From assembly GCF_001687565.2 (NCBI RefSeq), contig NZ_CP016534.2, positions 1,988,501-2,052,500 of the forward strand: DNA of 64,000 nt, written 5' to 3'. Source of the stretch: Planococcus antarcticus DSM 14505 (GTDB lineage: Bacteria; Bacillota; Bacilli; Bacillales_A; Planococcaceae). The stretch's first letter is position 1; each line of letters starts with the position of its first letter. Positions 41,108-64,000 of the stretch are shown piece by piece. A program made the translations under genes and the position numbers. Below the pieces are notes generated by a model. The model was not told the origin of the DNA, searched no databases, and was given only the letters and a program-made list of their open reading frames with translations.

Positions 41108-41992
41108 TCACCTCGCTTTTGGAAAGTCTAAAATCGGAAATAACAATTTTTCTTTGTGGCCATCGTTCAAGTATTGCAAGCAACTATCCAAATATACTTG
41201 GACTGCTGCTTGTAAGAATTGTTTTGAGTTGCGAATTTGAACTTTATATTCCAACATCTTCAATACTTTTCGTTTTTCGTCTTTTCCAAAAGTATCGGTA
41301 ATGTGTTCATGGACAATATAGTCGACAAGTGGTCGAAAAACCTCGACAAAATCGCTAGCTAAGTTCATTTGATTAAATTCGTTTGCGTGGAAAATTCCCA
41401 ACTCCGTCAAGTAACCACGGCTGACAATTTGACGCGCAATCAGTGAGTGTATGACCACGTAGCCATAATTTAGCGCCCAATTCCTCGGCTCATCTATGCT
41501 CCGGGTAAAATCTTGCCCGTACAGTCGATTAAAATATACTTTTGCCGCATGCCCCTCGCGATTAGTTGTATCAAAAACCTCTACTTGATCTCGGAACATG
41601 GACAGTTCATCAATGCCTTCTTTTTTTAAATGAATTAACAACTGACGTTGGTTCTCAATTTTCTGTTTAGTGATTTCTTGCCACAACATTCCTTTTCTCT
41701 CTTCCGTCCAAGTAGCTTGTTGGGCAATTATCCGACTCTGCCGGTGATGACCATAGACAGAATTCACTACAGATGAAGGTTTCATGTTGGCATCGCAAAT
41801 TAACGTAACAATGTGGTGGTGCGATAACGCATTAATGAGATGACCGGTCAATTGGATGTTTGGGTTTTCAATTAAAAGAAAACTTATCTCCTCTAAGGGA
41901 ACCCGATTTACTGTTTCTCCTGAAACAATCAAATGCCCCATACGTAACGTTAGCTTAGCTTCCTTGGCTAAAATAACCGTTCGCCAACTCAT
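41108..41992 (-). CDS. cas1: Cas1 integrase
   Basis: 294 residues, normal for type II. The metal ligands are visible: Glu in TTNREGHAAKVYFNRLYG, His in GIFHANEFNQMNLASDFVEVFRPLVD, and the Glu/Asp of DFVEVFRP. Starts at ATG 41992, overlapping the cas9 stop by four bases. It integrates new spacers at the leader end. Confidence 0.96.
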   Translation of the reverse strand: MSWRTVILAKEAKLTLRMGHLIVSGETVNRVPLEEISFLLIENPNIQLTGHLINALSHHHIVTLICDANMKPSSVVNSVYGHHRQSRIIAQQATWTEERKGMLWQEITKQKIENQRQLLIHLKKEGIDELSMFRDQVEVFDTTNREGHAAKVYFNRLYGQDFTRSIDEPRNWALNYGYVVIHSLIARQIVSRGYLTELGIFHANEFNQMNLASDFVEVFRPLVDYIVHEHITDTFGKDEKRKVLKMLEYKVQIRNSKQFLQAAVQVYLDSCLQYLNDGHKEKLLFPILDFPKAR

Positions 41993-44900
41993 CGCTTTGT
42001 TCCAACTACACTTCTTGGCTTTCTGTACTTTAAGCCTGTGATAGATTCATAACCAATAGCTACTTCTTCAGGCTTTGGTTTTTTCGAAATCCGACTTCCA
42101 AACGTATCTGAACGCTGGGCATTTGCAGCAACAGCTTTCTTCAGTTCTTCAAATCCTATTTCAAATGACTTAAAATCGTAGAGCTGCGTATCCACAAATT
42201 TTTGCACTCGATCTTGAATGGAGCTTTTCGTGTAAATTGGATAGTTATCATTCATCTGGTCAATTAAAAGTCCAAAAACTATTTTTAATTCTTCGACCGA
42301 TGAACGTTCACTCAACTGTTTTACCTTTTCCATCAACTCGTAAGATATTTCAAATTGACGTGCGTTATGCAGCTCTCTCGTCGAGATGAAATAATACGGG
42401 AAATGTTCTATCCAAATTTTTTGGTATTTTGGAATCGTTCGGATAATTCGTGCATGGATAATCGGACTGTTTGTTTCTTTTTCTGCTAAAAACTTTGCTA
42501 ATTGGCTTTCTGGTTCTTTTAAGAATTGATGGTGCTCAATGACTTTTAAATCTATAAACTTAGTCTCTTGCACCTCTTTCTCTTTCTTCATGAATGTAAA
42601 TTCCACTAGGCAAATAGAATGGTTCTTCACTTCATCGTGAACAAACTTCTCAGTTTTAGGTGAGACGTATTTTGCTTGCTTTACTTTAGGTGAAAAAATA
42701 CTTTCTTTATAGAACATTCCGTCCCCAGTTTGTGTCATTTTTGTTGTTTGCCACGGTAGCTCGAAGTAGACATGTTTCATGTATTCAACTCCTGAAACTT
42801 CTTCTCCAGTTACAGGACTCTGTAACCTTAAATTCCCGAAGTTTTTAAATAAGAAAAATTCTTTGTTGCTTCCTTTGACTGAACGCCACTGCTTTTGACG
42901 ATCTTTTTTAGACAGGTCAAACGCTAAAAAGTTTTTTCCATATTTACCTAGAATCGATTGAATGAGCGCAGCGGCAAATAGTGCATCCATTGCATGATGC
43001 TTGTTGTTATAATCACGTATTTTCGGTATTTCACTGAAGCGCCTGAATTTAGAGACAATCCCTGCTTTCACTAAGTGAATGTCTGATTTTGAAAATCGCT
43101 CATCGAGAAGGTCTCGGACGTGTTTAATAATTTGGCGTGTTTCAACCAATTGGCGCGCGATAAATTTATCTTTATCAACTTCATCAAAGCTGGGTTTCTT
43201 CAAACGTCCTAGCTTTCCGCTGGAAATAAGCTTCAGCTCATGAAGTCTCTCCCATAATGTACGCATAGCATATTGTTGATTAGCCTCAATGATTTCCAAC
43301 GGCATTTTATTTTGTCCAACTTGATTCTTACGCTGGTTCGCTTCCGGCATGACGAGTGCTAAGTTATCAAGACTATCGTCTTTCACAAAGTTTTGTGGCA
43401 GGATGTGGTCTACTTCATACATCGATAAGTTCTGAATATCCAATGCTTTTCCTGTATACAAACATTTTCCTTGCTGTGTGACATACAACCAGAAACGTTG
43501 CTCATTAAAACGTTGATCGCCTTGGCTTTTGATTTCTCCAATAAAGCTTTTCAGATCTGGATCATTTTTCAACGTTGTTTTCGTCAATTCTTCCCATTGG
43601 TCTTTTCGACTCTTCGTTCTTTTTTTCTCGCCATCTTCACGAGCCACTTCTAGAACGATGTTAGCTGGCTCACCAAATATGCTGACTAGTTCTTCGACAA
43701 TTTTCACCGAACGCCATATCCCTCGTTTTAATGCGGGTGAACCCGCCAGCTCTTCAATGTCTTCGTAGCGAATTTTTTTCGTTCCATCTACTTGATGTTG
43801 ATTCATCTTTTGAATTTTCTTTTCCAGTCCAAACCCTTTATTCTTTAATACCTCCATAAAGACAGAGCTATACTGTTCCATATGATCGAGGACACTTTGT
43901 CCCTGTTCATCAAGTGGCAGTCCATCGATTAATAACCTAGAAAAACGGCCCCATCCTGGAAGTTTTACAAGTGCTAGCTTTTGTCTCTGAACATCCGTAA
44001 TCGAAGGGTACTTTTCTTGAATCTTCAAGTGAAGAATTTCGCGATCTTCAAACACGGCTATCCAGTAAATAAGTTCTTCGGTCATTGCCGGATTATCATC
44101 AACTACTGCACCTAGAATCGATTTCATCGAAATGTACCCGCTTAAACTTGTTGCAAAAGCATTTTCTTTTTGTGTACCAAATACCTCTTTAATCTCCCCT
44201 GTATGTTCATCATAAAGTTCATCTGCGTATGGGCTTTTTTTCAACTCTTGTAATAAGCGTTTGGTACTAACCGTTTTATATTGCTTAAATACGTTGTCGA
44301 TGATCCAACATTTCATCTCGTAAGATAAACGGTGACGGAAATCCGATTCTGCACCTGTTGTTCGCAGTTGGATGCCGTTTAGTTCGTTAAGCACTTCAAA
44401 GCGTTCATAAGTCAGTGAACTTTTAGGTAGCACTTCTTGACCCTTTAAATACGTACAGGTTTTACGCATTCTGGATATAAATGCTTCAGCAGATGCTGCT
44501 TTATCAATTTGTTCATCAAAATTCCAAGGAGTTATGGGTGCATCTCCTTTTCGTTCGACCCAGCTGAATGGCGACTGAGTGGTATCTTTGACTAGCGGTC
44601 CGATGTAATACGGAATACGGAATGCAAGTATCTGTTTTACTTTTTCTATCCACTCGGTTGTGATAAATGGATAATGAGCTTGCTGATTCCGTAAAATTTT
44701 CTCTGCTTCATACAAACTGTTTTGATGGGGAATGGCAGCGTTTTGAATCCCTTTTTGCTTCTGAAGAAATTGATTGCTGTCGATTGCTTTGATAATCCGT
44801 AGCATCTCATCTTTTTCTGTTGTTCCAATACTAGTTTTCGACTTATCTTCTAACAGTTTTTTTAAGTCTTTATAGAACGTCTCTGCGAATTTCGCTTCTT

Positions 44901-45990
44901 TATTAAATTGGTCAAGCTTGCAGAGCACTTCGACTTTATGCGATTTTTGATATTCACGTTGACTGTTTTTATCGGAGATGAAATAAGAACGATAGACTTT
45001 TTCACCGAATGTTTTATCCAGTAAATTCTTAAGAGAAGCCATATCTTTTTGATACTGCTTGAATGCGCTGACTTTTGCCTTTGCTACATACGTCTCGCCT
45101 TTTAACAATTCGTAAAGAACAACTTGTTGATAAAAAGGTTGGACTGCTTCTAACAATGCACTTTCCTCTTCTAGCAACAATTCCATAACTTCTTCCACAT
45201 TTTCGTTGGAGAGCTGTACTTTGGTTTTGGTTTCTTTATAAGCGAGTGCTTGTTCCGAACTCGGAAATAGCTGATGAAGCGAAACCCCTAGGCCAGCAAC
45301 AAGTTTGCAAAACGGTTCATACTCTTTTCCGAACATGGCAGTTAGCTCTTTTGATTGGTCTGTTTTCGTAAGGTTGCGATTTAAGAGCAATGTTTCTGCA
45401 GCTTTCCATTGTGACTCACTTAAGTCTAAGGGTGATAAATTCTCTAATTCTGCATAACGAGTCACCAACTCTAAAAGTTGGTCATCCATTCCCTCTGCAG
45501 AAGCAGCTTCTGACCAATTTCCTTCCTGAAGAAAATGACCACGATACTTCACTAAGTTATGTAATGCCAAATAAACCAGACGCAAATCCATTTTTTTATT
45601 GGATTCAATTAAGTCGCTTCGCAAATGATAAATAGTCGGATACTTACGAGAACTAATTCTCAAAGAAGAAAGAACCTCCGTTAAGCTTCGATTTTCGAAT
45701 TCATTATTGTTTTTCCAAAAATGTTGAGAGTCTGTTTTTGAAAAGAATCCCGAATCGGTTATGTAGGAATCGAATAGTGACTGAAGTAGTTGCAACCTCT
45801 TCTTCCTACGGTTATAACGTCTTCTCATTCCTCGTTTGAGCCTTCTACCAGCTGCACTCTCAGCAGATTCAAATTCATGGACACCAAAAGCATGACGATT
45901 GTTATAGTTTAAAATTTTGTAGTTTTCATCTATACAAACCCATCCAACGCTTGCAACTCCAATATCCAATCCGATCGTATAGTTCTTCAT
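41989..45990 (-). CDS. cas9: Cas9 RNA-guided nuclease, type II-A
   Basis: 1333 residues from ATG 45990 (AAAGGGGG upstream); a longer frame to 46059 would run into the tracrRNA region. RuvC-I is YTIGLDIGVASVGW (Asp 9), the arginine-rich bridge helix is GRRLKRGMRRRYNRRKKRL, RuvC-II is NIVLEVARE, HNH is EVDHILPQNF (His 862) and RuvC-III is HHAMDA (His 999, Asp 1002). All nuclease residues are present, so it should cut both strands. The C-terminal PAM-interacting region cannot be used to predict a PAM by eye. First gene of the cas9-cas1-cas2-csn2 operon. Confidence 0.97.
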   Translation of the reverse strand: MKNYTIGLDIGVASVGWVCIDENYKILNYNNRHAFGVHEFESAESAAGRRLKRGMRRRYNRRKKRLQLLQSLFDSYITDSGFFSKTDSQHFWKNNNEFENRSLTEVLSSLRISSRKYPTIYHLRSDLIESNKKMDLRLVYLALHNLVKYRGHFLQEGNWSEAASAEGMDDQLLELVTRYAELENLSPLDLSESQWKAAETLLLNRNLTKTDQSKELTAMFGKEYEPFCKLVAGLGVSLHQLFPSSEQALAYKETKTKVQLSNENVEEVMELLLEEESALLEAVQPFYQQVVLYELLKGETYVAKAKVSAFKQYQKDMASLKNLLDKTFGEKVYRSYFISDKNSQREYQKSHKVEVLCKLDQFNKEAKFAETFYKDLKKLLEDKSKTSIGTTEKDEMLRIIKAIDSNQFLQKQKGIQNAAIPHQNSLYEAEKILRNQQAHYPFITTEWIEKVKQILAFRIPYYIGPLVKDTTQSPFSWVERKGDAPITPWNFDEQIDKAASAEAFISRMRKTCTYLKGQEVLPKSSLTYERFEVLNELNGIQLRTTGAESDFRHRLSYEMKCWIIDNVFKQYKTVSTKRLLQELKKSPYADELYDEHTGEIKEVFGTQKENAFATSLSGYISMKSILGAVVDDNPAMTEELIYWIAVFEDREILHLKIQEKYPSITDVQRQKLALVKLPGWGRFSRLLIDGLPLDEQGQSVLDHMEQYSSVFMEVLKNKGFGLEKKIQKMNQHQVDGTKKIRYEDIEELAGSPALKRGIWRSVKIVEELVSIFGEPANIVLEVAREDGEKKRTKSRKDQWEELTKTTLKNDPDLKSFIGEIKSQGDQRFNEQRFWLYVTQQGKCLYTGKALDIQNLSMYEVDHILPQNFVKDDSLDNLALVMPEANQRKNQVGQNKMPLEIIEANQQYAMRTLWERLHELKLISSGKLGRLKKPSFDEVDKDKFIARQLVETRQIIKHVRDLLDERFSKSDIHLVKAGIVSKFRRFSEIPKIRDYNNKHHAMDALFAAALIQSILGKYGKNFLAFDLSKKDRQKQWRSVKGSNKEFFLFKNFGNLRLQSPVTGEEVSGVEYMKHVYFELPWQTTKMTQTGDGMFYKESIFSPKVKQAKYVSPKTEKFVHDEVKNHSICLVEFTFMKKEKEVQETKFIDLKVIEHHQFLKEPESQLAKFLAEKETNSPIIHARIIRTIPKYQKIWIEHFPYYFISTRELHNARQFEISYELMEKVKQLSERSSVEELKIVFGLLIDQMNDNYPIYTKSSIQDRVQKFVDTQLYDFKSFEIGFEELKKAVAANAQRSDTFGSRISKKPKPEEVAIGYESITGLKYRKPRSVVGTKR

Positions 45991-46037
45991 TTCAAAATAT
46001 TCCCCCTTTACATTTTTCAAAAGAAAATGTACGCTAA

Positions 46038-46142
46038 GAGTGTTACTACTCTGTAACATTACATTGGTACGTTAAAATAAGCTTAAAGCGTAAAAGTTGG
46101 CCCTATGAGGTCTCCGCCATCGACTTCGTCGGTGGCTTTTTT
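46038..46142 (+). ncRNA. tracrRNA, divergent from cas9
   Basis: The anti-repeat (about 46040-46078) contains CATTACATTGGT and GTTAAAATAAG and pairs with the crRNA start GUUUUA-GA-CCAAUG, with a bulge of GA opposite ACGU, as in the S. pyogenes pair (GA opposite AAGU). After a small GCTTAAAGC nexus-like hairpin there is a 9-bp hairpin (GCCATCGAC-TTC-GTCGGTGGC) followed by six T, a proper terminator. It lies 48 bases upstream of the cas9 start on the opposite strand. The exact 5' end and promoter are not certain. Confidence 0.9.
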
Positions 46143-53227: not shown

Positions 53228-53352
53228 TGTAAACGCTAATATAAAAGTTGACCACTTGAAGGGGTTTCGCTCACCAAAAAGTTGACCACCTTTATCATAT
53301 ATCCCGTATCATTATGTTTGTCTAGAACAAGCATGATATGGGAGGAAAAGGA

Positions 53353-54864
53353 ATGATAAAGATGGCTAATATTGAGCTTATCAGAAAACTTCATTATGTG
53401 GAAAAAAGATCAATCCGGCAGTTATCAAAAGACTTGGGGTACTCACGACAGACGATTCGGAAAGCATTGGAACAGAACGAGATTCCTCGCTATACCCGAA
53501 CCGCACCCATCAAAAGGCCGGCGATCGACGCCGTCAAACCGTTGATTTTTCAGTGGATGCAGGAAGACCAAACAGCCCCTTTGAAGCAGCGCCACTCGGC
53601 TGCACAAATCTATCGCCGCCTTGTGAACGAATACCAATTCACCGGTGGTGAATCGACGGTCCGCCATTTTGTTCGGCAGGTCAAGCAGGAGTGGGATTTA
53701 CTGGCGCCACCCTCTTCCATTCCGTTGGAATTTCAAGCCGGTGAATTCGCCCAATTCGATTGGGGAGAAGTCATCATCGAATTGAATGGCAGCGAGATCA
53801 AATGCATGCTCTTTTGCATACGGCTTTTGTATAGCCGGAAAATCTTTGTGAAAGTATTTCCCCACCAGCGTCAGGAAGCGTTATTCCAGGGGCACCTTGA
53901 TGCGTTCAATTATTTCGGTGGTGTGCCGAAGACGATTGTGTATGACAATATGAAGACGGCGGTCAAAAAAGTGTTGGAAGGGACGAAGCGGGAAGAGCAA
54001 GAAGCGTTCATCGCATTTCGTTCGGCCTTTTTGTTCGATGCCCAATTTTGTGCACCGGCAAAAGGAAATGAAAAGGGGCAGGTGGAGAAGCTGGTACAAA
54101 CAGCGAGAGCGCAATTTCTAGTGCCTGTCCCCAAAGTAACCAGTTTGGAAGAGCTGAATGATCACCTAAAAATGTGTTGCGATCGTTACGACCTACATAA
54201 AGTACCGAATTCAGCTGATTTAGTGCACCAACGGTTCACGGAGGAAAAAGCACTTCTCCTGCCGATTCTCAGTCGATTTGACTGTGCGCGCCGTGTTGGG
54301 GTAAACATTAACACGCTGGCATTGGTGAATTTCGAGACCAACCGGTATTCCGTCCCGACCCGTTATTCCGGCAGGAAGGATGCTTTTCTGTATGCGTACG
54401 TCGATAAAATCATCATCAAAATCGACGGAGAAACGATTGCGGAACACGAGCGTCTCTACACACAGCGCGGAGAATTGTTGGACATTGACCATTACCTGGA
54501 TGAACTGGAGAGAAAGCCACGTGCCATCCCTTTCGCACGCCCGTTGAAAAAGAACACACTGCCCGCCTCTTATCAGTCGTTTTACCGGGAAACCAACCTG
54601 CGGTATGGTCATGGAAAAGAACTGATTCGTGTGTTGAAGCTGCATCGGGATTATCCAGCTTCGGCAGTCGAGAACGCCGTCCGCCAAAGTGTGGAGAAAC
54701 AGTTATTCACGTGCGATGCGGTCAAACAATTTCTCTATCAAACCTTGCATCCGGCACTTGCGAACCCCTTGCCGATGATGTACGAAGTCACGGAAAGCAT
54801 TCGCGTAAAACCTCCTGCACTCGGAGACTACAATGAATTATTGAAGGGCGGTATCTATCATTGA
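53353..54864 (+). CDS. istA: IS21 transposase IstA (element 2)
   Basis: About 503 residues from ATG 53353 (GGAGG seven bases upstream). Helix-turn-helix RSIRQLSKDLGYSRQTIRKALE, rve core FAQFDWGEVII (D), TIVYDNMKTAVKK (D), and PAKGNEKGQVEKLVQTAR (E). Intact; the stop overlaps the istB start by four bases. Confidence 0.93.
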   Translation: MIKMANIELIRKLHYVEKRSIRQLSKDLGYSRQTIRKALEQNEIPRYTRTAPIKRPAIDAVKPLIFQWMQEDQTAPLKQRHSAAQIYRRLVNEYQFTGGESTVRHFVRQVKQEWDLLAPPSSIPLEFQAGEFAQFDWGEVIIELNGSEIKCMLFCIRLLYSRKIFVKVFPHQRQEALFQGHLDAFNYFGGVPKTIVYDNMKTAVKKVLEGTKREEQEAFIAFRSAFLFDAQFCAPAKGNEKGQVEKLVQTARAQFLVPVPKVTSLEELNDHLKMCCDRYDLHKVPNSADLVHQRFTEEKALLLPILSRFDCARRVGVNINTLALVNFETNRYSVPTRYSGRKDAFLYAYVDKIIIKIDGETIAEHERLYTQRGELLDIDHYLDELERKPRAIPFARPLKKNTLPASYQSFYRETNLRYGHGKELIRVLKLHRDYPASAVENAVRQSVEKQLFTCDAVKQFLYQTLHPALANPLPMMYEVTESIRVKPPALGDYNELLKGGIYH

Positions 54865-55613
54865 ATGAGCATCATTTCCAGCTGGAAGATTACTTAAAAC
54901 GGTTGCGCCTCCCGGCCATCCGAGCGCAACTGGATGTCTATCTCCGGGAAGCCAACGAACAACAGATGACCTATGAATCCTTTCTGTACCACCTTCTTCA
55001 ACTGGAGGTAGCGGAAAGGGAAATCAAACGGAAGGAACTGGCGCGCAAGCAAGCCAGGTTCCCCGTCGAAAAGACCTTAGCCGATTTCTATTTTGAGCGT
55101 GCGCCCCATGTACCCAAAAGAAAAGTATTGGAAATTGCCGAAGGCAATTATATTTACGATAAACGCAACGTCCTCATGATCGGGAATTCGGGGACCGGCA
55201 AAACCCACATCATGATTGGATTGGCGCAGATCGCGATTGAAAAAGGCTATAAGGTCAGGTATTATACCGCAGCCGGGCTAGCCAACGAAATCATGGAAGC
55301 ACAAGACGAAAAAAAGCTTCTCCAACTTGAAAAGAAATGGTTAGCAGCCGATTTGGTTTTGGTCGATGAATTGGGGTATATTCCGTACCATAAAAGAGCC
55401 GCCGAATTGATGTTTCAATTTTTCTCCAGCCGTTACGAAAAAGGCAGCATGATCATCACCAGCAACCGGGAATTCAACAAATGGAACGAAGTCTTCCACG
55501 ATGATCAGATGACCGCCGTCTTGTTGGATCGACTCACGCACAAAGCGCATATCCTCGATATGAACGGGGAGAGTTATCGTTTACGAGAGACCTTGGAGTC
55601 CAGGTCGATCTAA
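54861..55613 (+). CDS. istB: IS21 helper ATPase IstB (element 2)
   Basis: 250 residues from TTG 54861, in ATTGA overlap with istA. Walker A MIGNSGTGKTHIMIGLA, Walker B LVLVDELGYIP, sensor SMIITSNREFNKW and RLTHKAHILDMNGESYRLRET. Intact. Confidence 0.93.
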   Translation: MNEHHFQLEDYLKRLRLPAIRAQLDVYLREANEQQMTYESFLYHLLQLEVAEREIKRKELARKQARFPVEKTLADFYFERAPHVPKRKVLEIAEGNYIYDKRNVLMIGNSGTGKTHIMIGLAQIAIEKGYKVRYYTAAGLANEIMEAQDEKKLLQLEKKWLAADLVLVDELGYIPYHKRAAELMFQFFSSRYEKGSMIITSNREFNKWNEVFHDDQMTAVLLDRLTHKAHILDMNGESYRLRETLESRSI

Positions 55614-55873: not shown

Positions 55874-56419
55874 CTAGTCTTTGCCCCCAAATTTCCACTT
55901 GTATTTTGCCGGGGCATTTTTCAATTCGTCCAGATCGCTCTGCAGCTGCTGGACGATGGCCACAAGCTGTTCTTCCCGTTCCTGACTCTTTTTCAATTCG
56001 TTTTTCATGTCCCTAAGGACGTCAGCATAGTCTAGAGGGTTCGGCAATTGAGGTTTCGGCTGCTGTTTCATGAGTCGCTACAGGTCATTGATTTTTGGAT
56101 TCTTCTATATGAGCAATTCAACAAGCTGGTTAAGAAATTGCCAAGCAACTATCAGCTCCGTATCCAGCAGTTTCAATTCTCCTCCAAATCGTTTCTAGCC
56201 ACTTAGTTCGACTTCTTCAAAATTCTTTCGTTTAATCTCATTCACTCGCTATTCATGGATAAGCTGCGTAATTAAAACAATCTGTTTCATCTGGTCTTAG
56301 GTACATCCCCGGTGATAATTCTGCTTAGAGTTTTTATTACTTACCATGCCTTCCCGTTCCCAGAGTTGATGAACTTTAAAATTCATTGCTTTTATAAGTC
56401 AGCTAATTAGAATTCGCAT
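55874..56419 (-). pseudogene. MerR-like plasmid-type DNA-binding gene with six in-frame stops
   Basis: One continuous minus-strand frame of 181 codons from ATG 56419. The N-terminal part fits a MerR-type helix-turn-helix (MNFKVHQLWEREGMVSNKN then DQMKQIVLITQLIHE). The C-terminal 65 residues form an intact coiled coil with a basic aromatic end (LRDMKNELKKSQEREEQLV, YKWKFGG), like DUF3967-type tails. Stops lie at 56399 (TGA), 56297 (TAA), and 56249, 56195, 56105 and 56078 (all TAG), with no frameshift. Every one could come from a C-to-T change (CGA, CAA, CAG). Positions 56420-56719 hold no gene. Confidence 0.65.
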
Positions 56420-56719
56420 ATCCCCACCACTTAAATTTAGCTTTATTGAGTTAAAAACAGCTTTATTTTATGCTTTCTTAAGCTAAAAGATACTTTTTTA
56501 AAGGTATTAATAGAATAAAAAGTAAAAAGGCCCAATTGAGAAATTTATAATTAATAATATATTTTAACAATAGAAAAAATGGTATTAAACCCCTATTTAT
56601 AGCGGGCCCAAACTACTGTAAGGTGATGTGAAAGAAGTAAATTTTCCCCTTTATTTACTATGGCCATAGTCTTTAGGAATTATTTCTTCTTCACTTTTAC
56701 CAGGAAGGAGGTCTTTACA

Positions 56720-56947
56720 ATGTCTGCAGTCTCTACAATGGTTCTATCTTATCAGTTTTCTCTTGAAGAAAAATTTTCAGGTGTGATTGAAAACAAATGG
56801 TTCTGGATGGTCTTTGCTCTTCTTGTCCTTGTTGGTCTATTTGCGTATGCTTTTTATTGTACAAGTCGTGGTTATAGTTTTAATGGAAATGTTAAGCTTA
56901 ACTGGCCAAAGATTTGGCAAATGGGAATTGGCTGTAAAGCCACTTAA
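56720..56947 (+). CDS. 75-residue hydrophobic peptide, candidate peptide precursor
   Basis: ATG 56720 with a very strong AAGGAGGT site. The peptide has a polar N-terminal third (LSYQFSLEEKFSGVIENK), one hydrophobic segment (WFWMVFALLVLVGLFAYAF) and a basic, aromatic C-terminus ending NWPKIWQMGIGCKAT with a cysteine four residues from the end. It is followed by an attenuator-like hairpin and then ABC exporter genes and a membrane protease. This is the layout of bacteriocin or signalling-peptide operons. It could instead be a small membrane subunit of the transporter. Not recognised as a known family. Confidence 0.6.
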   Translation: MSAVSTMVLSYQFSLEEKFSGVIENKWFWMVFALLVLVGLFAYAFYCTSRGYSFNGNVKLNWPKIWQMGIGCKAT

Positions 56948-56959
56948 CTTATATAGGGG

Positions 56960-56985
56960 AAGGGGGTTCTTAGGGCCCCTTTTTA
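56960..56985 (+). terminator. Attenuator-like hairpin between peptide and ABC genes
   Basis: AAGGGG/CCCCTT stem with a 10-base loop and a TTTTT run, 13 bases after the peptide stop and 18 bases before the ABC ATPase start. Such partial terminators let a precursor peptide be made in excess over export genes. Confidence 0.6.
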
Positions 56986-57002
56986 ATTAGGAGAGGATTA
57001 TC

Positions 57003-57719
57003 ATGTTAGAGATTAAAAACTTATCGAAAAAATTTAAACAACAAGTTATTATCGATAATCTAAGTACAAACTTCTCTCAAACAGGAATCACTGTCATTGT
57101 TGGAACTAATGGGAGTGGTAAAACCACTTTGTTGAATATGATTACGAACCTGCTTCAACCAGACTCGGGTCAGATTGTGCTGGATGAATTAAATCCAGGT
57201 AGTCGTGAATATAAATCAAAAATTTTTTATCTCCCATCTGATTTTTATTTACCAGGTTACATGACCGGGAAAGAATATGCTCATTTTGTTTTAAGCCGAT
57301 ACGATACAAGCAATTATAATCAATTACCCAAATTATTAAATCTTTTAGATATGACCCAAAGTCAAAACAAAACGATTGAGTCCTATTCTTTTGGAATGAA
57401 AAAGAAAATCCAAATTGCAGTTGCAATTGCTGCCAATACTGATTATATAATTGCAGATGAAATCTTAGGTGGACTAGATTTTGATACCGTGATTCTCGTT
57501 CAAGAAATTTTCGATGCGATTAGCAACAAGAAAAAAATCATCATCGTCTCGCATGAACGTAACACCATTGATCGTTTTCCCGAGGATGTTCGCCTCATGC
57601 GCAAAGGCACACTCACTTCCTTTACAGGATCTCCAGATGAACTAACTAAATTCATTAAGCAGGAGGGCGTCTTACATGACAAACTCATTGAAATTCAAAA
57701 ACATTTTATGCATTCTTAA
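57003..57719 (+). CDS. ABC transporter ATPase
   Basis: 238 residues. Walker A VGTNGSGKTTLLN, a Q-loop region IFYLPSDFYLPGYMTG, signature SYSFGMKKKIQIAVAIA (a divergent LSGGQ), Walker B YIIADEILGGLD and the switch His in VSHERNT. It is of the single-domain class used with separate permeases in lantibiotic-immunity and peptide-resistance exporters. AGGAGAGG precedes ATG 57003. It overlaps the permease gene by 44 bases. Confidence 0.9.
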   Translation: MLEIKNLSKKFKQQVIIDNLSTNFSQTGITVIVGTNGSGKTTLLNMITNLLQPDSGQIVLDELNPGSREYKSKIFYLPSDFYLPGYMTGKEYAHFVLSRYDTSNYNQLPKLLNLLDMTQSQNKTIESYSFGMKKKIQIAVAIAANTDYIIADEILGGLDFDTVILVQEIFDAISNKKKIIIVSHERNTIDRFPEDVRLMRKGTLTSFTGSPDELTKFIKQEGVLHDKLIEIQKHFMHS

Positions 57720-59052
57720 ATTTTTTTATAATGATACGTTTCACGGGATGTTTAACCGCCCATTCTTTAAGAGCAAAGTTAATCGTTATGGATTAATTCT
57801 AATTCTAACCCTTCTTTATCTGGGTTATTTTTACTTAAACATGATCCAACTCGCCACTTTAAGCAAGAATATTCAAGACGTACATAGCACGAATCTCATG
57901 ATTGCAGCAAAAATGACATTGAGTAGCTATTTCAATATTGTCTTAATCTTAAGTGCCTTTTTGTTTATATTAGTTAATTCAACAGTGAGCTTAAATAAGA
58001 ATTCCTTATTTTTCGCCAAAACGCTTCCATTCTCTGAAAAAGAAGTCAGTGTCAGCCAAATGATATTCAAGTTAAGTGTTGCTTTAGCCTTCTTTGAATT
58101 GTTAATTATCATTGTTGCACCAGCCCTCAAACTCATATCGATGAATATCTTTACCGCAGGCCTTGTACTTATAACGCTTCATACGCTGTTCATTGCTAGT
58201 TTTTTTATATTAGAATTGATATACGCTTTCGTCTTAAAAGATACTGCGGGTACGAAAAGACTTTTGTTCACTTTTTCGCTTGATTTTTTGATTATTGTAT
58301 TCGTTACGGTTCATTTGTTAATTACCCGTTTTAAGATAGATGCTTGGACTAGTGTACAAGAAGAATCTATTCTTCAAATGACATTTATCGTTCTCTTCAC
58401 TAGTCTAATGATTGGAACAATTGTTTATCTATTAAATGCTAAATTTTTTGCTAAAGACAATATATACGTCCAATCAGATTACTTCAAACTTGGATTGCCG
58501 GCAATAAATATTGGACTAGCGACCACAATGCCTGCCATTGTGCGGAGTAAAAATTTCCTCTACTTTTGGGCATTGTTGATTGTTATCTCGATTGGTTCAT
58601 TCGTTCAGAACGGGCTGGACAGTACATTCCAATTGTGGCTATTTTCATTACCAGTTCTTGGAATCGTAACGATTACCTATGCAGATGCTACGATTTCCAT
58701 TCGCAAGCTATTCACCATCTACAAAATCAGTCCATTGACAGAACTTGCTTCCTTACTTGGGGTCTCCATCCTCTTGATGTCCCCTGCTCTATATGTAGGA
58801 ATCATAGAGACGCAAAATCTTGACCCTTATATGTATGGCATCAATATCTTCTTTGTCGCAACAATTGCAGGCTTTTTATTTCCCAAGTCGCAAAGTAATA
58901 TCAATGAGACCATCGCATCCGTATTAACATTCGTTATTATCATAATATTATCTGCACTCATCGGCGTTAAAGGAGCTTTATACCCTTCTCTTCTTATACT
59001 TCTGGGTGTTCTCTACGTAATCTTAAAGAAAGAATATGAGGTGGCAAAATGA
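57676..59052 (+). CDS. ABC transporter permease
   Basis: 458 residues with about 12 hydrophobic segments, no signal peptide and no large extracellular domain. An in-frame ATG at 57676 starts it inside the ATPase gene; later starts such as MFNRPFF at about 57751 are possible. No named family is certain; it resembles the large ABC-2-type permeases of Bacillota peptide exporters. Last codons overlap the next gene by four bases. Confidence 0.75.
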   Translation: MTNSLKFKNILCILKFFYNDTFHGMFNRPFFKSKVNRYGLILILTLLYLGYFYLNMIQLATLSKNIQDVHSTNLMIAAKMTLSSYFNIVLILSAFLFILVNSTVSLNKNSLFFAKTLPFSEKEVSVSQMIFKLSVALAFFELLIIIVAPALKLISMNIFTAGLVLITLHTLFIASFFILELIYAFVLKDTAGTKRLLFTFSLDFLIIVFVTVHLLITRFKIDAWTSVQEESILQMTFIVLFTSLMIGTIVYLLNAKFFAKDNIYVQSDYFKLGLPAINIGLATTMPAIVRSKNFLYFWALLIVISIGSFVQNGLDSTFQLWLFSLPVLGIVTITYADATISIRKLFTIYKISPLTELASLLGVSILLMSPALYVGIIETQNLDPYMYGINIFFVATIAGFLFPKSQSNINETIASVLTFVIIIILSALIGVKGALYPSLLILLGVLYVILKKEYEVAK

Positions 59053-59324
59053 AAATCACAAAGTACATTGGAATCGGCACAGTAGTCTGGGCGATTATTT
59101 TCTTAATCGATTACATTTATGAACTGTTTAAAATAACGGAAACAAGTGTGGTTACGACTCTTGCAGGATTACGCATTACAACTGTGATGACTAAGGAAGA
59201 GTTAAATACTTACTTCTCACTCACATGGCAAGCTTTAATCATGTATCTTGTCTTCTTGATTGTTTTTGTTTCGCTTGCCTTACTCATCAACTCAAAAAAG
59301 CGTCTAACAAGCTATGACAACTGA
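59049..59324 (+). CDS. Small two-TM membrane protein
   Basis: 91 residues starting in an ATGA overlap with the permease. TM segments YIGIGTVVWAIIFLIDYIYEL and WQALIMYLVFLIVFVSLALLI flank a loop with LAGLRITTVMTKEE. Not recognised; it may be an accessory subunit or immunity protein. It overlaps the following gene by 11 bases. Confidence 0.6.
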   Translation: MKITKYIGIGTVVWAIIFLIDYIYELFKITETSVVTTLAGLRITTVMTKEELNTYFSLTWQALIMYLVFLIVFVSLALLINSKKRLTSYDN

Positions 59325-59730
59325 AACAGTTGTCATTCTTTTTAGTTACGTCTTTATTGTCATCAGTATTGTTATTCTTCATGAAGCAATTCATTGGATG
59401 TTCGCTCTATTGTTTCGTAGAGTCCCTACTCTCAAATTCGAACATTTTTTTACGCCAGTTATTACTTACAAAAACAATCAATCCGATATACAAAATTTGA
59501 TTATTTCAGCTTCTGCTCCTTTAGGCCTTTTTACTGTAGGTCTTTTAATTGAAGCTGATAGCGGAATACTCGTGTTGATCAAAATAATGTGCTTGGCTAA
59601 TATTTTTAACTTCCTTCCCCTAACAGCGGATGGCCAAGTAATATTGTTATCTCTTCTTAACATGCTTAAAAAAAGGCGAACAGGAAGAACAGATCACTCT
59701 AAAATGCCTCTTCCCAAAAAGCGAAATTGA
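59314..59730 (+). CDS. HExxH membrane metalloprotease-like protein (DUF3267-like)
   Basis: 138 residues with three to four hydrophobic segments. VIVILHEAIHWMFALLFRR contains a HExxH zinc-binding motif inside a TM helix, and FNFLPLTADGQVILLSLL resembles the NxxPxxxxDG motif of site-2-type proteases (with TADG in place of PxxDG). The size suits DUF3267-type zincins. In B. subtilis yydH, a membrane protease in an ABC/peptide operon, is comparable. It would process the peptide or act in immunity; this is inference. Confidence 0.72.
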   Translation: MTTETVVILFSYVFIVISIVILHEAIHWMFALLFRRVPTLKFEHFFTPVITYKNNQSDIQNLIISASAPLGLFTVGLLIEADSGILVLIKIMCLANIFNFLPLTADGQVILLSLLNMLKKRRTGRTDHSKMPLPKKRN

Positions 59731-59862
59731 GTAGATAACCATTAGGAAGAAACAGGAAGCAACAGATTGCTATTTATTTAAATGTCTTTGAGGACAAGAA
59801 ACTACAGTTGAAATTTTTAAGCTACAACTTCGAAAAGAAGTTACAGAAGCATTGATCAAATT

Positions 59863-59900
59863 AAAGAAGATGCTGTACCAAGAGCATCTTCTTTATCTTT
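59863..59900 (+). terminator. Terminator of the peptide/ABC operon
   Basis: 12-bp stem aaagaagatgct with an 8-base loop, followed by a T-rich run. The next 240 bases have no gene. Confidence 0.8.
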
Positions 59901-60206
59901 TCCTAATATGCCATTGGACTTCAGAAAATACCTCTTACATTTTGAGTGATCTGTAGATGTCTTAAATCTTTAAGGGGAAAATGCAAAGAACCAGATTAAA
60001 GCTAAAATGACATAAAGAAAGATTTTTAAGAACACCGAATGCTATTCTTCTATCGATTTATTGATTTTCAAGACCAAATAAAGAACAAAAATGACCAAAA
60101 ACATTTTGGGAATTACAAAATCGTCAGTAGTGGTCTTCTGTCAAGAAAGTGGACACAGAAAAACTGTTCTTTTTCTTCAAAAACCCTATCGCGCTCCGCT
60201 TGATCG

Positions 60207-60254
60207 GACAGCCATGAGAAGCGGTTCAAAAGCGAACCGCTTCTCATGGCTGTC
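60207..60254. repeat. Perfect 21-bp stem-loop at the 3' end of the IS transposase
   Basis: Arms 60207-60227 (starting gacagccatgagaagc) and 60234-60254 are exactly complementary with a 6-base loop. It lies between the orfB stop and the IS end, overlapping neither coding gene. Confidence 0.9.
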
Positions 60255-60260
60255 AAACTG

Positions 60261-61115
60261 TCACGAAACCAATCGTTCTGATATCAGGGATGCGTATTTT
60301 TTTTCATAGTTTTCGGGTGACAAATAACCGAGTGTGGAGTGCCGTCTACGCAAATTATAGAAGTCATCGATGTAATGGCCGATTGCCTTTCGAGCGTCTT
60401 CCCGTGTTCGGAACCGGTGGCGGTAAATCAGCTCTTTCTTAATGGTGGCGTGAAACGATTCGATGCAGGCGTTATCGTACGGATCTCCCTTGCGGCTCAT
60501 GCTGATTTGGAATTCGGCTTTTTTCAAGCACTTAATGTACTCATCGGAACAGTATTGAGAGCCGCGGTCAGAGTGATGGATTGGCTCACCAGTGGGATTT
60601 CGCAAGAGCAGCGCCTCTTGCAGCGCCCCAAGTGGCAGTTCGGTCTTCATCGTGACATCCAGACTCCACCCGATAATCTTGCGCGAGAATAGATCCATTA
60701 CACTCGCCAGATACAACCATCCCTCTAGCGTCCAGATATACGTGATATCGGATACCCAGACCGTATTGGGCTTGTCGACATTAAAACGGCGCTCGAGAAG
60801 ATTTGGGTAAACGAATTGGTGATGGTTGGAATCCGTCGTTGTCACGAATTGTTTTACTGGCAATGCACAGAGTCCTAGCTCTTTCATGTAACGACCCACG
60901 GTTCGTTCGCATATGGAATATCCCTGCGCCTTGAGATCTTCAAGAATGCGCGGGCTACCATAGGTGCCATAGCTCTCATGATACGATTGAGCAATTTTTT
61001 GGAGAAGTTCTTCCCGCAGAATCTGCCGTTCAGTCCGAGTAGCTACGACCAGCTGAGTCCGCCATTTATAGTAGCCGCCTCTGGATACGCCAAGTAAATT
61101 ACACATCATCAACAC
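60261..61115 (-). CDS. IS3 OrfB transposase
   Basis: 284 residues. HTH_21 GTYGSPRILEDLKAQGYSICERTVGRYMKELGL; rve core VWVSDITYIW (D), IHHSDRGSQYCS (D), GDPYDNACIESFHATIKKE (E); C-terminus RRRHSTLGYLSPENYE. Probably translated as an OrfAB fusion through frameshift at the orfA end. Intact. Confidence 0.92.
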   Translation of the reverse strand: MLMMCNLLGVSRGGYYKWRTQLVVATRTERQILREELLQKIAQSYHESYGTYGSPRILEDLKAQGYSICERTVGRYMKELGLCALPVKQFVTTTDSNHHQFVYPNLLERRFNVDKPNTVWVSDITYIWTLEGWLYLASVMDLFSRKIIGWSLDVTMKTELPLGALQEALLLRNPTGEPIHHSDRGSQYCSDEYIKCLKKAEFQISMSRKGDPYDNACIESFHATIKKELIYRHRFRTREDARKAIGHYIDDFYNLRRRHSTLGYLSPENYEKKYASLISERLVS

Positions 61116-61153
61116 GTCGTATTCGTTCCGATGCTCCTGGATGAACGAAAAGA

Positions 61154-61453
61154 TTACGTGCGGCTTTTCATGAAGACATGCATGGCCTTTTTTAAGATTT
61201 CTACTTCATCGTCACGCTCTTTCAGCCGGTTTTCTGTATCCCGCAGCTTCTTCTCCATCTCTGAGAAGGTGACCAGCGGCTCACCCGTTGGATTCGCTAA
61301 ACGCTCTTGCTTTTCCCGATACTCTCTTGCCCATTGCCGCACCGTTGTGGCACTCACGCCGACTTCATAAGCCAGGTCCGTGGCTTTCCGTCCTTCTTTG
61401 ATATGGAGCTTGGCGATATATTCCTTGTATTCGGTCGTTTTGTGTTTACCCAT
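61154..61453 (-). CDS. IS3 OrfA
   Basis: 99 residues from ATG 61453 (AAAGGA upstream). Helix-turn-helix EYIAKLHIKEGRKATDLAYEVGVSATTVRQWAREY and a heptad-type helix (EMEKKLRDTENRLKERDDEVEILKKAM) for multimerisation. Confidence 0.9.
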   Translation of the reverse strand: MGKHKTTEYKEYIAKLHIKEGRKATDLAYEVGVSATTVRQWAREYREKQERLANPTGEPLVTFSEMEKKLRDTENRLKERDDEVEILKKAMHVFMKSRT

Positions 61454-61683
61454 GTTTGACACGTCCTTTTTCTTGGTGGTTTCAGTATGTCGAAAACCGT
61501 TTGGTCGTGTCCACTTTTAAGTCTAAACCCATTATGTGGCTTATTAGTAGGCTGGTTCAAATAATTGTACGATTACGAAAGGTTATTTCAAACAAACCGG
61601 CTATATTGTTGTGATTATGAAACTAATTGCTGTCTCATTCTGTCTTACTTAATAATAATTTCCAGTGTAATGGAGGTATGACT

Positions 61684-61968
61684 ATGTGGTTCATATTAGG
61701 ACTTATCGCAATAACAGCAACTTGTATAAATCTTTTTATGTATGCAGCAGGCAAAGATTATAAATTGGCAATGGCCATGGGATTATCTTTTACAGCATTA
61801 ACGGTTGTTGCAGATTACAGTATGGTGGCCAATTGGGTAAATGCGGAAGATTGGTCTGCTTTATTAGATGTAGTTCCTACGATGGCAGCAGCGTTATGGA
61901 TTTTAACAATACTATCAATTTTATTAAGTATAACTCCTATACTTTTAGAACTAAAAAACAAAAACTGA
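61684..61968 (+). CDS. Small three-TM membrane protein
   Basis: 94 residues from ATG 61684, seven bases after GGAGG. Three hydrophobic segments: WFILGLIAITATCINLFMYAAG, LAMAMGLSFTALTVVADYSMV and TMAAALWILTILSILLSITPILL. Not recognised. A CDS is likely because the ribosome site is strong. Confidence 0.6.
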   Translation: MWFILGLIAITATCINLFMYAAGKDYKLAMAMGLSFTALTVVADYSMVANWVNAEDWSALLDVVPTMAAALWILTILSILLSITPILLELKNKN

Positions 61969-62066
61969 TTACGTGATTAAGAAAGGTTAACCTTCGACAA
62001 ACAAGTCCAATTGTTTAAAAACTGATTATAAAAAAATTGCTAAAAGCAGTAGGAATGGGGAATCTT

Positions 62067-62624
62067 ATGACAAAGGAAAAATGGCTACTCGTATTTTTGG
62101 GAATCATGGACATCATTCTTGTCGTCATGAATTATACAGGTTATGTTCTACTTTTTTTAAAACCAACAGGGTATGTAATCCCTTTGGTTTTAAACATTCT
62201 TATCATTAGTGTAATCATCTTTAAATCAAAACTTTCTAAAGTATGGACAGCTGTCATCCTTTTCACTGGTATACCTATACTATTGTTCCATGGTTTTATA
62301 GTTTTGTGGATGGATCGGAATTATATTGAAACCGTTACTTCCGATAACCAACAATCACTAGTAATCGAATACCGACATGCAACACTAGGAGAAACAACTT
62401 ATTTTTATAATTTTTACAAGACAAAAAACGGTTTTGTTGGCAAGCACCTTGATGACCAATCAATTGAAGTGATAGTTTATGATGGTTCGTTTATCGACCC
62501 AGAAGGTGTTTTAGGTTTGGGTAAAGAAAAATGGATTACTGAAAATACCGTTCGTTTTTTTACTCAGAAAGGGATAAAGGATGTGTATTTAAGTCCTTCT
62601 CATCAATCAACTGAAATGGAATAA
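62067..62624 (+). CDS. Membrane protein with extracytoplasmic C-terminal domain
   Basis: 185 residues from ATG 62067 (GGGG upstream). Three TM segments (WLLVFLGIMDIILVVMNYTGYVLLFL, YVIPLVLNILIISVIIF, WTAVILFTGIPILLFHGFIVLW) are followed by a strand-rich domain with SLVIEYRHATLGETTYFYNFYKTKNGFVGKHLDD. Not recognised. Positions 62625-63058 hold no gene except a copy of the dispersed GATAATCCTCT hairpin at 62807. Confidence 0.6.
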   Translation: MTKEKWLLVFLGIMDIILVVMNYTGYVLLFLKPTGYVIPLVLNILIISVIIFKSKLSKVWTAVILFTGIPILLFHGFIVLWMDRNYIETVTSDNQQSLVIEYRHATLGETTYFYNFYKTKNGFVGKHLDDQSIEVIVYDGSFIDPEGVLGLGKEKWITENTVRFFTQKGIKDVYLSPSHQSTEME

Positions 62625-62806
62625 AAAAGGTAGTTCCACTGAAATCAGTACGATTGTTTACGAAGAAAGGGTGGCAAAAGCGACTCTTTTTTGTTTGTGC
62701 TTTTCCCTTTGTTTTAAGGTTAAGGTTAAGACGTGTTTCATTGTGTAAATACAGACAAGTAAGTGAAAAAGAGCGAAGTATCATACGCAAAATTGACAAT
62801 AGTAAC

Positions 62807-62823
62807 GATAATCCTCTGTTATC
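62807..62823. repeat. Dispersed GACAATCCTCT repeat, copy e
   Basis: GATAATCCTCTGTTATC: both arms differ from the other copies by matching (compensating) changes, so the stem is kept. Preceded by AGTAAC. Confidence 0.7.
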
Positions 62824-63058
62824 GATAGCTTTATCCAACTGCAAAAAAAATATAAGTAATCTTTTTGAAGTTTACTAATTTACATGCACAATAACGCTTA
62901 AAACTAACGCAAAATAACGCTAAAATAACAAATAACTGGATTTTTTTCAATAGGTTATACCTTTCTAATTTTATTCAATGCAATGTCTGCCATCATGAAA
63001 CCTTATATCAATCCGAACGTATAGAATACTATCTTGCGAAAATGGTGGTGCTATACAG

Positions 63059-63553
63059 ATGAATGAACAATATGCCGCTCCTCGGCATTCTCTCTCACCC
63101 AATGCAGTCAAATACTGGCGCATGGATGAACTTATTTCCAACCTTATTGCCTTTATAGTCCTGGCCGTGCTGTTTTACCTGGACTGGCACTTTGAATGGT
63201 ACAACTGGATTTTTTGGGTCCTGATTGCCTTGGCTATCTTTTTTGTAGTTGGCTTGGCTTGGTCGGTTCTCAGTCCGCCACTCACTTTTAAAAACTGGCG
63301 CTACGATTTGGACGAAGAGTTTTTGTATCTTCAGTTTGGTATTTGGAACCGGACAGAGCAATTGGTGCCGATGACGAAAATTCAGGCTGTTTCCTTGACG
63401 CAGGGACCTTTGATGCGCAAATTTAACCTTGCTTCTTTGTCAGTAGAAACGATGGGTTCAAGCCATGCAATTCCGGCATTGCCAAAAGAAACGGCAGCCG
63501 ACCTGCGTGAGCGCATTGCCCAATTCGCTAAAATCAAGGAAGTGGAACAATGA
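63059..63553 (+). CDS. ydbS: YdbS-like PH-domain (bPH2) membrane protein
   Basis: 164 residues: NEQYAAPRHSLSPNAVKYWRMDELISN, two TM segments (LIAFIVLAVLFYLDWHF, WIFWVLIALAIFFVVGLAW), then a bacterial PH domain YDLDEEFLYLQFGIWNRTEQLVPMTKIQAVSLTQGPLMRKFNLASLSVET. It overlaps the next gene by four bases as in the ydbST operon. In B. subtilis YdbST, part of the SigW regulon, protect against antimicrobial peptides such as amylocyclicin. Confidence 0.88.
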   Translation: MNEQYAAPRHSLSPNAVKYWRMDELISNLIAFIVLAVLFYLDWHFEWYNWIFWVLIALAIFFVVGLAWSVLSPPLTFKNWRYDLDEEFLYLQFGIWNRTEQLVPMTKIQAVSLTQGPLMRKFNLASLSVETMGSSHAIPALPKETAADLRERIAQFAKIKEVEQ

Positions 63554-64000
63554 TTGCCATTCGTCGCCATCATCCGGCAACCGTTCTTTTTAAAATAGGT
63601 AAATTACTTCGGAATTCGATTTTCATAATCTTAGTGTTATTTGTTTTTCAAGCCAACAACAGTTCTACTCTTTTTGTTTACGGCCGTTATGCATTTTTGC
63701 TGTTTTTTCTTTGGTCCCTTGTATCCTCTGTTTTAAATTGGCTAACGACCACTTATGCACTTGACGACCAGCGGTTCTATTTGCGACGAGGCATTTTCAA
63801 TAAAACCGATCAGTCGATTCCATTTTCAAAAGTTCAGAACATCAATCGCCATACCTCATTTTCCCATCGTTTGTTGGGGCTGACATCGATCAGTTTCGAA
63901 ACTGGAATTGCTGGTGAGGATTCCTCCGTGAAATTCGAAGTCACTACGAAAAAAGAAGTGCTTCGGCTGGAGTCAGCTGTCCAAGAACACAAAGAATCTC
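63550..64000 (+). CDS. ydbT: YdbT-like multi-PH-domain membrane protein (partial)
   Basis: The first 150 residues are visible: basic N-terminus (IAIRRHHPATVLFKIGKLLRN), two TM segments, then a PH domain (YALDDQRFYLRRGIFNKTDQSIPFSKVQNINRHTSFSHRLLGLTSISFET). It runs off the right edge. Paired with YdbS in one operon. Confidence 0.85.
   Translation, partial: MIAIRRHHPATVLFKIGKLLRNSIFIILVLFVFQANNSSTLFVYGRYAFLLFFLWSLVSSVLNWLTTTYALDDQRFYLRRGIFNKTDQSIPFSKVQNINRHTSFSHRLLGLTSISFETGIAGEDSSVKFEVTTKKEVLRLESAVQEHKES

What the first reader, a model, noticed from the sequence alone, without database searches (positions are those of the whole stretch)
56720..59730. Candidate undescribed peptide operon: precursor, attenuator, ABC exporter, small membrane protein, HExxH protease
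Seen: a 75-residue hydrophobic peptide with a very strong ribosome site, then a partial-terminator hairpin, then four overlapping genes for an ABC ATPase, a 12-TM permease, a two-TM protein and a membrane protein with HExxH. Known: YydFGHIJ and lantibiotic-immunity operons combine a peptide with an ABC exporter and a membrane protease. Inference: a new ribosomally made antimicrobial or signalling peptide with its own processing and immunity genes. No radical-SAM or lanthionine enzyme is present, so the peptide would be unmodified, cyclised or only cleaved.
Basis: partly seen in the sequence, partly recalled or inferred. Interest (0 to 1): 0.75.

Follow-up and report, generated by a model that had tools for sequence, protein, structure and literature searches.

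The report
TMcin-type pore-forming bacteriocin operon
This is a five-gene operon that very probably makes a TMcin, a recently described kind of antibacterial peptide that keeps its membrane helix and punches pores in rival bacteria; it is a new member of a known kind, and many relatives carry an extra gene that may form its sulphur bond.

Summary
In detail: 56720-59730 holds an intact 75-aa membrane peptide, ABC ATPase, polytopic permease, two-TM protein and HExxH (DUF3267) protease. This order recurs in 34 of 37 related loci, so it is a real cassette, but not an undescribed class. It matches TMcin (Dickey et al. 2025; Nur et al. 2026), tmcA-B-C-E-P. The peptide has one TM helix, then a C-terminal loop between two conserved cysteines 25 residues apart, as in TMcin-G1905 (C25/C50). 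Best explanation: a secreted, disulfide-closed pore-forming bacteriocin, its leader cut by the S2P-type protease with a two-TM escort, exported by the ABC transporter. No direct alignment to TmcA-G1905 was possible. Beyond the papers: 24 of 37 relatives (not the window) have a sixth gene, a membrane-anchored PedC-like thioredoxin. Among 34 genomes checked, DsbB/BdbC is absent in 22 of 22 with that gene, and present in 9 of 12 without it, the window's among them; the other three have damaged clusters. That pattern is clade-confounded.

The parts
56702..56711 (+). Strong Shine-Dalgarno sequence (AGGAAGGAGG) of the peptide gene
   Evidence: Sequence; G-rich sites also precede the peptide start in relatives
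56720..56947 (+). tmcA-like precursor peptide, 75 aa: N-terminal leader about residues 1-22 (inferred), TM helix 26-49, C-terminal loop with C47 and C72
   Evidence: AlphaFold2 model helices 3-23 and 26-49, strands 52-58 and 70-74, mean pLDDT 71.9; Cys spacing 25 in 42 of 57 aligned sequences
56958..56984 (+). Hairpin between peptide and ABC genes, possible partial terminator that would favour peptide mRNA
   Evidence: 12-bp stem; weak against shuffles here; a hairpin in this gap in 5 of 6 loci folded; function inferred
57003..57719 (+). tmcB-like ABC ATPase (Walker A GTNGSGKT, signature-like SFGMKKK, Walker B with E; motif names recalled)
   Evidence: PF00005 E 1.2e-22; sequence
57676..59052 (+). 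tmcC-like polytopic permease, 458 aa
   Evidence: No Pfam or NCBIfam hit; homologous permeases lie beside a peptide gene in nearly all loci examined
59049..59324 (+). tmcE-like two-TM escort protein, 91 aa
   Evidence: Same position in the operon as in relatives; hydrophobic stretches 2-30 and 54-86
59314..59730 (+). tmcP-like S2P/DUF3267 intramembrane protease, 138 aa, H23-E24-x-x-H27, conserved P69, distal D106
   Evidence: PF11667 E 5.3e-7; motif positions; profile match over 32 positions to a zinc metalloprotease of known structure, 9j82, E 9.4e-5

Best explanation
The operon is a TMcin biosynthetic cluster of the order tmcA-B-C-E-P. The 75-aa precursor inserts in the producer's membrane by its single helix. 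The DUF3267/S2P-type protease, helped by the two-TM escort, removes the N-terminal leader near residue 22/23. The two cysteines (C47, C72; mature 25 and 50) form a disulfide that closes the C-terminal two-stranded loop. The window cluster has no disulfide gene, so the chromosomal BdbC/BdbD-like pair of this genome would do it. The ABC exporter then pulls the mature peptide of about 53 residues out of the membrane and releases it; in target Gram-positive membranes it oligomerises into beta-barrel pores ringed by the helices. Shown by others in S. aureus G1905: leader cleavage, disulfide, export, escort, large pores (the barrel itself is modelled). Inferred here by homology and anatomy: every step for this operon.
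For: Gene content and the protease family match the published cluster. Cys-Cys spacing is 25, identical to G1905 C25/C50. The predicted fold is a leader helix, a TM helix, then two strands bracketed by the Cys, like the published TMcin model. HExxH + distal Asp are conserved. The peptide is more conserved than the permease (59% against 33% identity with Kandleria L010). Five genes in order in 34 of 37 loci. Sporadic distribution: of 46 genomes of the genus only the window's own has the peptide; transposase genes on both sides. Own genome has DsbB twice and a Thioredoxin_4/BdbD-like gene next to one of them.
Against: The TmcA-G1905 sequence could not be obtained (record not held), so membership rests on architecture, spacing and gene content, not on a direct alignment. 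The paper speaks of two Trp flanking the TM helix; the window has W27/W29 at one end but Y46 at the other. G1905 has another gene order (tmcA last) and DsbA and regulator genes. The AlphaFold model is of moderate confidence, 57-66 in the loop region. No activity is shown for this operon.
Confidence: 0.9

Rival explanations
1. The peptide is a signal (pheromone-like) peptide: the S2P-type protease and ABC exporter make an extracellular signal rather than a bacteriocin.
For: High conservation of the C-terminal 30 residues across genera; no dedicated immunity gene is recognisable in the window operon.
Against: No sensor or regulator gene stands out beside the operon in the seven loci whose neighbours I listed, read by eye; architecture and Cys spacing equal a proven pore-former; sporadic distribution with transposase genes on both sides.
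Confidence: 0.06
2. The 75-aa protein is a structural subunit or regulator of the ABC transporter/protease complex, which has another substrate.
For: Nearly always co-encoded with the ABC genes.
Against: Own strong ribosome site and a hairpin between it and the ABC genes; variable N-terminal leader with a conserved C-terminal two-Cys part; experimentally the G1905 counterpart is the secreted product. Two loci keep B and C without a recognisable A (L070, L073), one of them broken.
Confidence: 0.03
3. A silent or dying cassette in an IS-rich region (compatible with the best explanation of its origin).
For: Flanked by IS21-type (53338-55613) and IS3-type (60261-61462) transposase genes; several relatives are damaged (L011, L014, L069, L072, L073, L075).
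Against: All five window ORFs are open, catalytic and ABC motifs and the overlapping starts are kept.
Confidence: 0.1

Closest known systems
TMcin (TMcin-G1905, tmcABCEP+D; PMC12328743, PMC13252029)
   Same: Precursor with one TM helix and two conserved Cys 25 apart; ABC ATPase and polytopic permease; 2-TM escort; DUF3267 S2P protease; no lanthionine or radical-SAM enzyme
   Different: Window order A-B-C-E-P, G1905 order B-C-E-P-A (read from the preprint's wording); shorter leader (about 22 against 45); no DsbA (tmcD) or regulator genes; Trp at one end of the helix only; another genus and family
PedC/BrcD bacteriocin disulfide accessory proteins
   Same: The sixth gene of 24 related loci (not of the window) matches TIGR01295 (best E 5.5e-7) and structurally the bacteriocin transport accessory protein 1zma
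   Different: Far below the TIGR01295 cut-off (29.6 against 120 bits); N-terminal membrane anchor; sits after tmcP
YydFGHIJ
   Same: Peptide + ABC + membrane metalloprotease
   Different: No radical-SAM epimerase here; peptide with TM helix and two Cys

Membership tests
TMcin | Precursor with a single TM helix kept in the mature peptide | tested here: met
   Precursor helix 26-49, hydropathy peak 25-50; that the mature product keeps it is inferred
TMcin | Two universally conserved Cys (mature C25, C50), the second near the C terminus | tested here: met
   C47 and C72, spacing 25; same spacing in 42 of 57 rows, 22 in 12 of 57 (one of these with a third Cys), 24 in 1, YCT motif not found in 2
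TMcin | C-terminal two-stranded beta loop after the helix | tested here: met
   Strands 52-58 and 70-74, but block pLDDT only 57-66 there
TMcin | Two conserved Trp flanking the TM helix | tested here: inconclusive
   W27/W29 at the N-terminal end; Y46, not Trp, at the other. The published logo is a figure and could not be read
TMcin | tmcP of PF11667 with HExxH and distal Asp | tested here: met
   PF11667 over cut-off; HEAIH at 23, D106
TMcin | tmcB/tmcC ABC exporter and tmcE two-TM protein in one operon with tmcA | tested here: met
   By anatomy; no sequence test of C and E against G1905 proteins was possible
TMcin | Sequence homology to TmcA-G1905 | not testable with these tools
   Record NZ_LFNJ01000005 not held; the text I read prints no sequence
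TMcin | Secreted pore-forming antibacterial activity | not testable with these tools
   Needs the bench
YydFGHIJ | Radical-SAM epimerase in the operon | tested here: not met
   The five operon proteins were scanned and none matches one; no further ORF fits between the transposase genes by eye

The most novel reading that the evidence does not exclude
TMcin clusters come in two disulfide economies. Where the host has no DsbB/BdbC, the cluster carries its own membrane-anchored, PedC-like thioredoxin right after tmcP, in two loci in frame with it, as the TMcin disulfide enzyme; hosts with BdbC, like the window's, dispense with it. The 2026 preprint states that non-staphylococcal clusters lack tmcD, and its main text does not mention this gene.
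Probability: 0.6. Interest if true: 0.55.

Novelty: new member of a known kind. Interest (0 to 1): 0.42.

Why it matters
By its discoverers' account TMcins are unusual among antimicrobial peptides in forming large stable pores, and the two papers found study one of them (S. aureus G1905). An intact, compact five-gene cluster from a relative of Sporosarcina, with counterparts in Exiguobacterium, lactic acid bacteria and others, gives simpler systems to work with. The thioredoxin pattern makes the open question of how non-staphylococcal TMcins get their essential disulfide directly testable.

Tried and rejected
Viral contigs: two scans gave no true relative (two 12-residue matches, L003 and L004; none). 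Plasmid collection: no match to the window's peptide, permease or protease, nor to P0059, P0052 or the L014 permease; the ATPase found 4 plasmids at 33-37% identity. Pfam Wzz and FixQ hits to the peptide (E 0.01 and 0.49) are below cut-off and taken as TM-helix noise. A PDB profile search with the peptide found nothing significant (best E 0.28). A phylum-wide draw of 398 genomes hit only the window and the MAG already known. Comparison of the window-type permease profile with the Paraclostridium permease gave no homology (probability 2.8), so the clostridial clusters are only tentatively grouped. A search of the own genome with the sixth-gene profile gave only E 0.24 and 0.31, and none in window 56001-64000. 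A structure search of the peptide model was not run because its confidence is moderate.
Full report
What is there. The window at 56720-59730 (+) holds five open ORFs: a 75-aa peptide with a very strong ribosome site, an ABC ATPase, a 458-aa polytopic permease without any Pfam or NCBIfam match, a 91-aa two-TM protein and a 138-aa HExxH membrane protein of PF11667/DUF3267. Genes 2-5 overlap by 44, 4 and 11 bases. A 12-bp hairpin lies between genes 1 and 2. On its own it is not better than shuffles (z -0.93, 41 of 200), but a hairpin sits in that gap in 5 of 6 loci folded, window included, with other sequences.

It is a real cassette. The peptide has 20 homologues by single-sequence search and 82, those 20 included, with a profile. 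Those with a source name are called hypothetical, uncharacterized or, once, membrane protein, from Exiguobacterium, Sporosarcina, Oenococcus, Lactobacillus, Ligilactobacillus, Staphylococcus, Bacillus, Priestia, Halobacillus and Streptococcus suis; many are metagenomic. A scan of one genome for each of 84,980 species returned 10 loci, all 10 with matches to the five genes in order. Searching with the permease profile gave 10 of 398 genomes of the class, 18 of 295 of one unnamed family that is probably Streptococcaceae (the name is my inference, and two hits, G485 and G651, are fragments), 1 of 84 of the genus of S. cornubiensis, 8 of 301 of the family of Oenococcus kitaharae, and 2 of 398 across the phylum, both already known. 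In the class survey all 10 genomes with the permease had the peptide just upstream; the two-TM gene of L024 was missed by tblastn there but found by profile in the same place (L067).

I annotated 37 loci with profiles: the 10 picked by peptide and 27 stretches fetched around permease hits (not fetched that way: fragments G485 and G651, and G226, G295 and G381, seen only as short loci). Of the 37, 34 have A-B-C-E-P in order. L081 and L084 repeat the contigs of L007 and L005, so this is 32 of 35 distinct records. The exceptions are L070 (B and C only), L073 (no A; permease broken) and L077 (contig end). Of the 27 picked by permease, 24 have the peptide. Of 46 genomes of the window's genus only the window's own has the peptide, and IS21-type and IS3-type transposase genes lie on either side, so it looks acquired.

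What it is. A literature search for DUF3267 with bacteriocin led to TMcin. Of PMC13252029 I read parts 1-3 of 5, the figure section and part 1 of the references, and passages. Of PMC12328743 I read parts 1-3 of 10 (abstract, introduction, results), the discussion, three method sections and the data statement, and passages. TMcin-G1905 is a secreted peptide of 52 residues (from 'C25 to R52') with its TM helix kept, a disulfide between C25 and C50, and large oligomeric pores modelled as beta-barrels. Its cluster has tmcA (precursor), tmcBC (ABC exporter, 12-TM permease), tmcE (2-TM escort) and tmcP (DUF3267, S2P-like protease with HExxH and a distal Asp). The window peptide has C47 and C72, 25 apart; the second Cys is followed by three residues (two in G1905). 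If the numbering is carried over, the mature peptide starts at residue 23 and has 53 residues. AlphaFold2 on the 57-row alignment gives helices 3-23 and 26-49 and strands 52-58 and 70-74, mean pLDDT 71.9 but only 57-66 in the loop region, with the helix break at the expected cleavage point. The protease has HEAIH at 23 and Asp at 106, and its family profile matches a zinc metalloprotease of known structure over 32 positions (E 9.4e-5). Of what could be tested, all is met except the second flanking Trp, which is a Tyr here. The TmcA-G1905 sequence could not be compared.

How it works. By analogy with the G1905 experiments: membrane insertion of the precursor, leader removal by tmcP with tmcE, disulfide formation, extraction and release by tmcBC, and pores in Gram-positive targets. 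All steps are inferred for this operon. The disulfide matters, since in G1905 it is needed for activity, yet the window cluster has no sixth-gene thioredoxin. The window's genome has two DsbB/BdbC genes, one of them next to a Thioredoxin_4/BdbD-like gene (C1:3600495-3601444), which could do it. How the producer is immune was not studied in the preprint, and I see no immunity gene here.

A sixth gene in the relatives. In 24 of 37 loci (24 of 35 distinct records) a gene follows tmcE/tmcP, called trx below. It encodes an N-terminal membrane anchor and a thioredoxin domain with C-P-W-C or close variants. I aligned 16 of the 24; both active-site Cys are invariant there. The eight left out are L011, L013, L063, L064, L067, L069, L071 and L073: L063 reads W at the first Cys, the L013 ORF loses the domain halfway and runs into another gene's domain, and L011 and L073 are joined to tmcP sequence. 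Five proteins scanned match the PedC/BrcD disulfide family weakly (E 5.5e-7 to 0.094, all below cut-off). The AlphaFold2 model of the Kandleria protein (pLDDT 90.7) best matches the bacteriocin transport accessory protein 1zma (E 7.2e-6, TM-score 0.48 by query). In L073 tmcP and this domain are one ORF, and in L011 the second half of tmcP is in one ORF with it; both clusters are damaged, so these may be decay rather than working fusions. The preprint says tmcD is missing from non-staphylococcal clusters. The words thioredoxin, PedC, PqqD and Bdb do not occur in its main text, nor thioredoxin, PqqD, Bdb or oxidoreductase in that of the first paper (supplements and figures not seen).

Test of the host-enzyme idea. 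Of 34 genomes searched for DsbB (PF02600), 22 have trx in the cluster and 0 of 22 have DsbB; 12 lack trx and 9 of these have DsbB: the window, the Sporosarcina-like genome and seven of Exiguobacterium (one named through L006; the rest share the group g51, the Exiguobacterium group by their contigs). The other three lack both: S. cornubiensis (its peptide ORF ends before the second Cys; it has a Thioredoxin_4 gene), G581 and G885 (protease motif incomplete). Absence of trx in G381 was checked only over about 850 bases after tmcP. Some of the 22 clusters are damaged (G650, G436). Thioredoxin_4 did not divide the genomes in this way: 5 of 34 hit, namely the window's, two of the seven Exiguobacterium, S. 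cornubiensis and one genome with trx (G981); the Sporosarcina-like genome did not. G655, G696, G485 and G651 were not included. The result is confounded: window, Sporosarcina-like and Exiguobacterium permeases form one clade (100/100), so the nine may reflect one loss or gain.

More distant clusters. The ATPase led to Paraclostridium bifermentans and Peribacillus muralis plasmids with 72- and 70-aa peptides of like design (last two Cys 24 and 25 apart). In Paraclostridium an S2P-like protein carries an N-terminal PqqD domain (PF05402 E 9.5e-13, HEWIH and a distal DG), and a Thioredoxin_4 protein and a protein annotated as DUF3267 follow. In Peribacillus no protease was seen in the stretch read. 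The peptides match the window-type profile at only 12-16 bits, and the Paraclostridium permease does not match, so I treat them as TMcin-like, not as proven members.

Verdict. Real, apparently intact, and a new member of a known and very recent kind. The window adds one member from a host genus in which no other sampled genome has it; its relatives add the sixth-gene pattern. In the held library I found only the two TMcin papers; subscription papers and supplements were not searched.

Noticed in passing
window:53338-55613 (+) and 60261-61462 (-): IS21-type istA/istB and IS3-type transposase genes lie on either side of the cassette; cassette GC 0.352 against 0.397 for the window.
   Followed up: partly
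L009-L013, L058-L069, L071, L073, L074, L076-L079, downstream end of the cluster: PedC-like membrane-anchored thioredoxin as sixth gene of TMcin clusters; in one ORF with tmcP in L073 and with its second half in L011, both damaged clusters.
   Followed up: yes
L088:3660-8609 (Paraclostridium bifermentans plasmid): TMcin-like cluster whose S2P-like protein carries an N-terminal PqqD domain, with a Thioredoxin_4 gene and a further protein annotated as DUF3267.
   Followed up: partly
L089:3695-6185 (Peribacillus muralis plasmid) and L090:5938-8609 (Roseburia sp. 831b plasmid): Further TMcin-like peptides (unannotated in L089), beside ABC genes in L089 and beside an annotated metalloprotease in L090.
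   Followed up: partly
L014:9971-12884 (Staphylococcus cornubiensis): Cluster appears damaged: the peptide ORF ends before the second Cys and the protease ORF lacks the distal DG motif.
   Followed up: partly
L010 and L013 (Kandleria vitulina DSM 20405): Two separate TMcin clusters in one genome, one just after ATP synthase genes, one after a groEL-like gene (neighbours named by eye, not searched); the L013 sixth gene is truncated into another gene.
   Followed up: no
window:59314-59336: Ten-pair terminator-like hairpin with a T-rich tail over the start of the protease gene (terminator-like sites in the region are no more than in shuffles).
   Followed up: no
window:38661-46059: Apparent type II CRISPR-Cas locus (large Cas9-like ORF 41989-46059, smaller cas-like ORFs, repeat array); identified by eye only.
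   Followed up: no
window:63059-63553: Bacterial PH-domain protein (PF03703 E 5.3e-20); such proteins are linked to leaderless bacteriocin transport (title and start of abstract seen), but it lies beyond the IS3 element.
   Followed up: no
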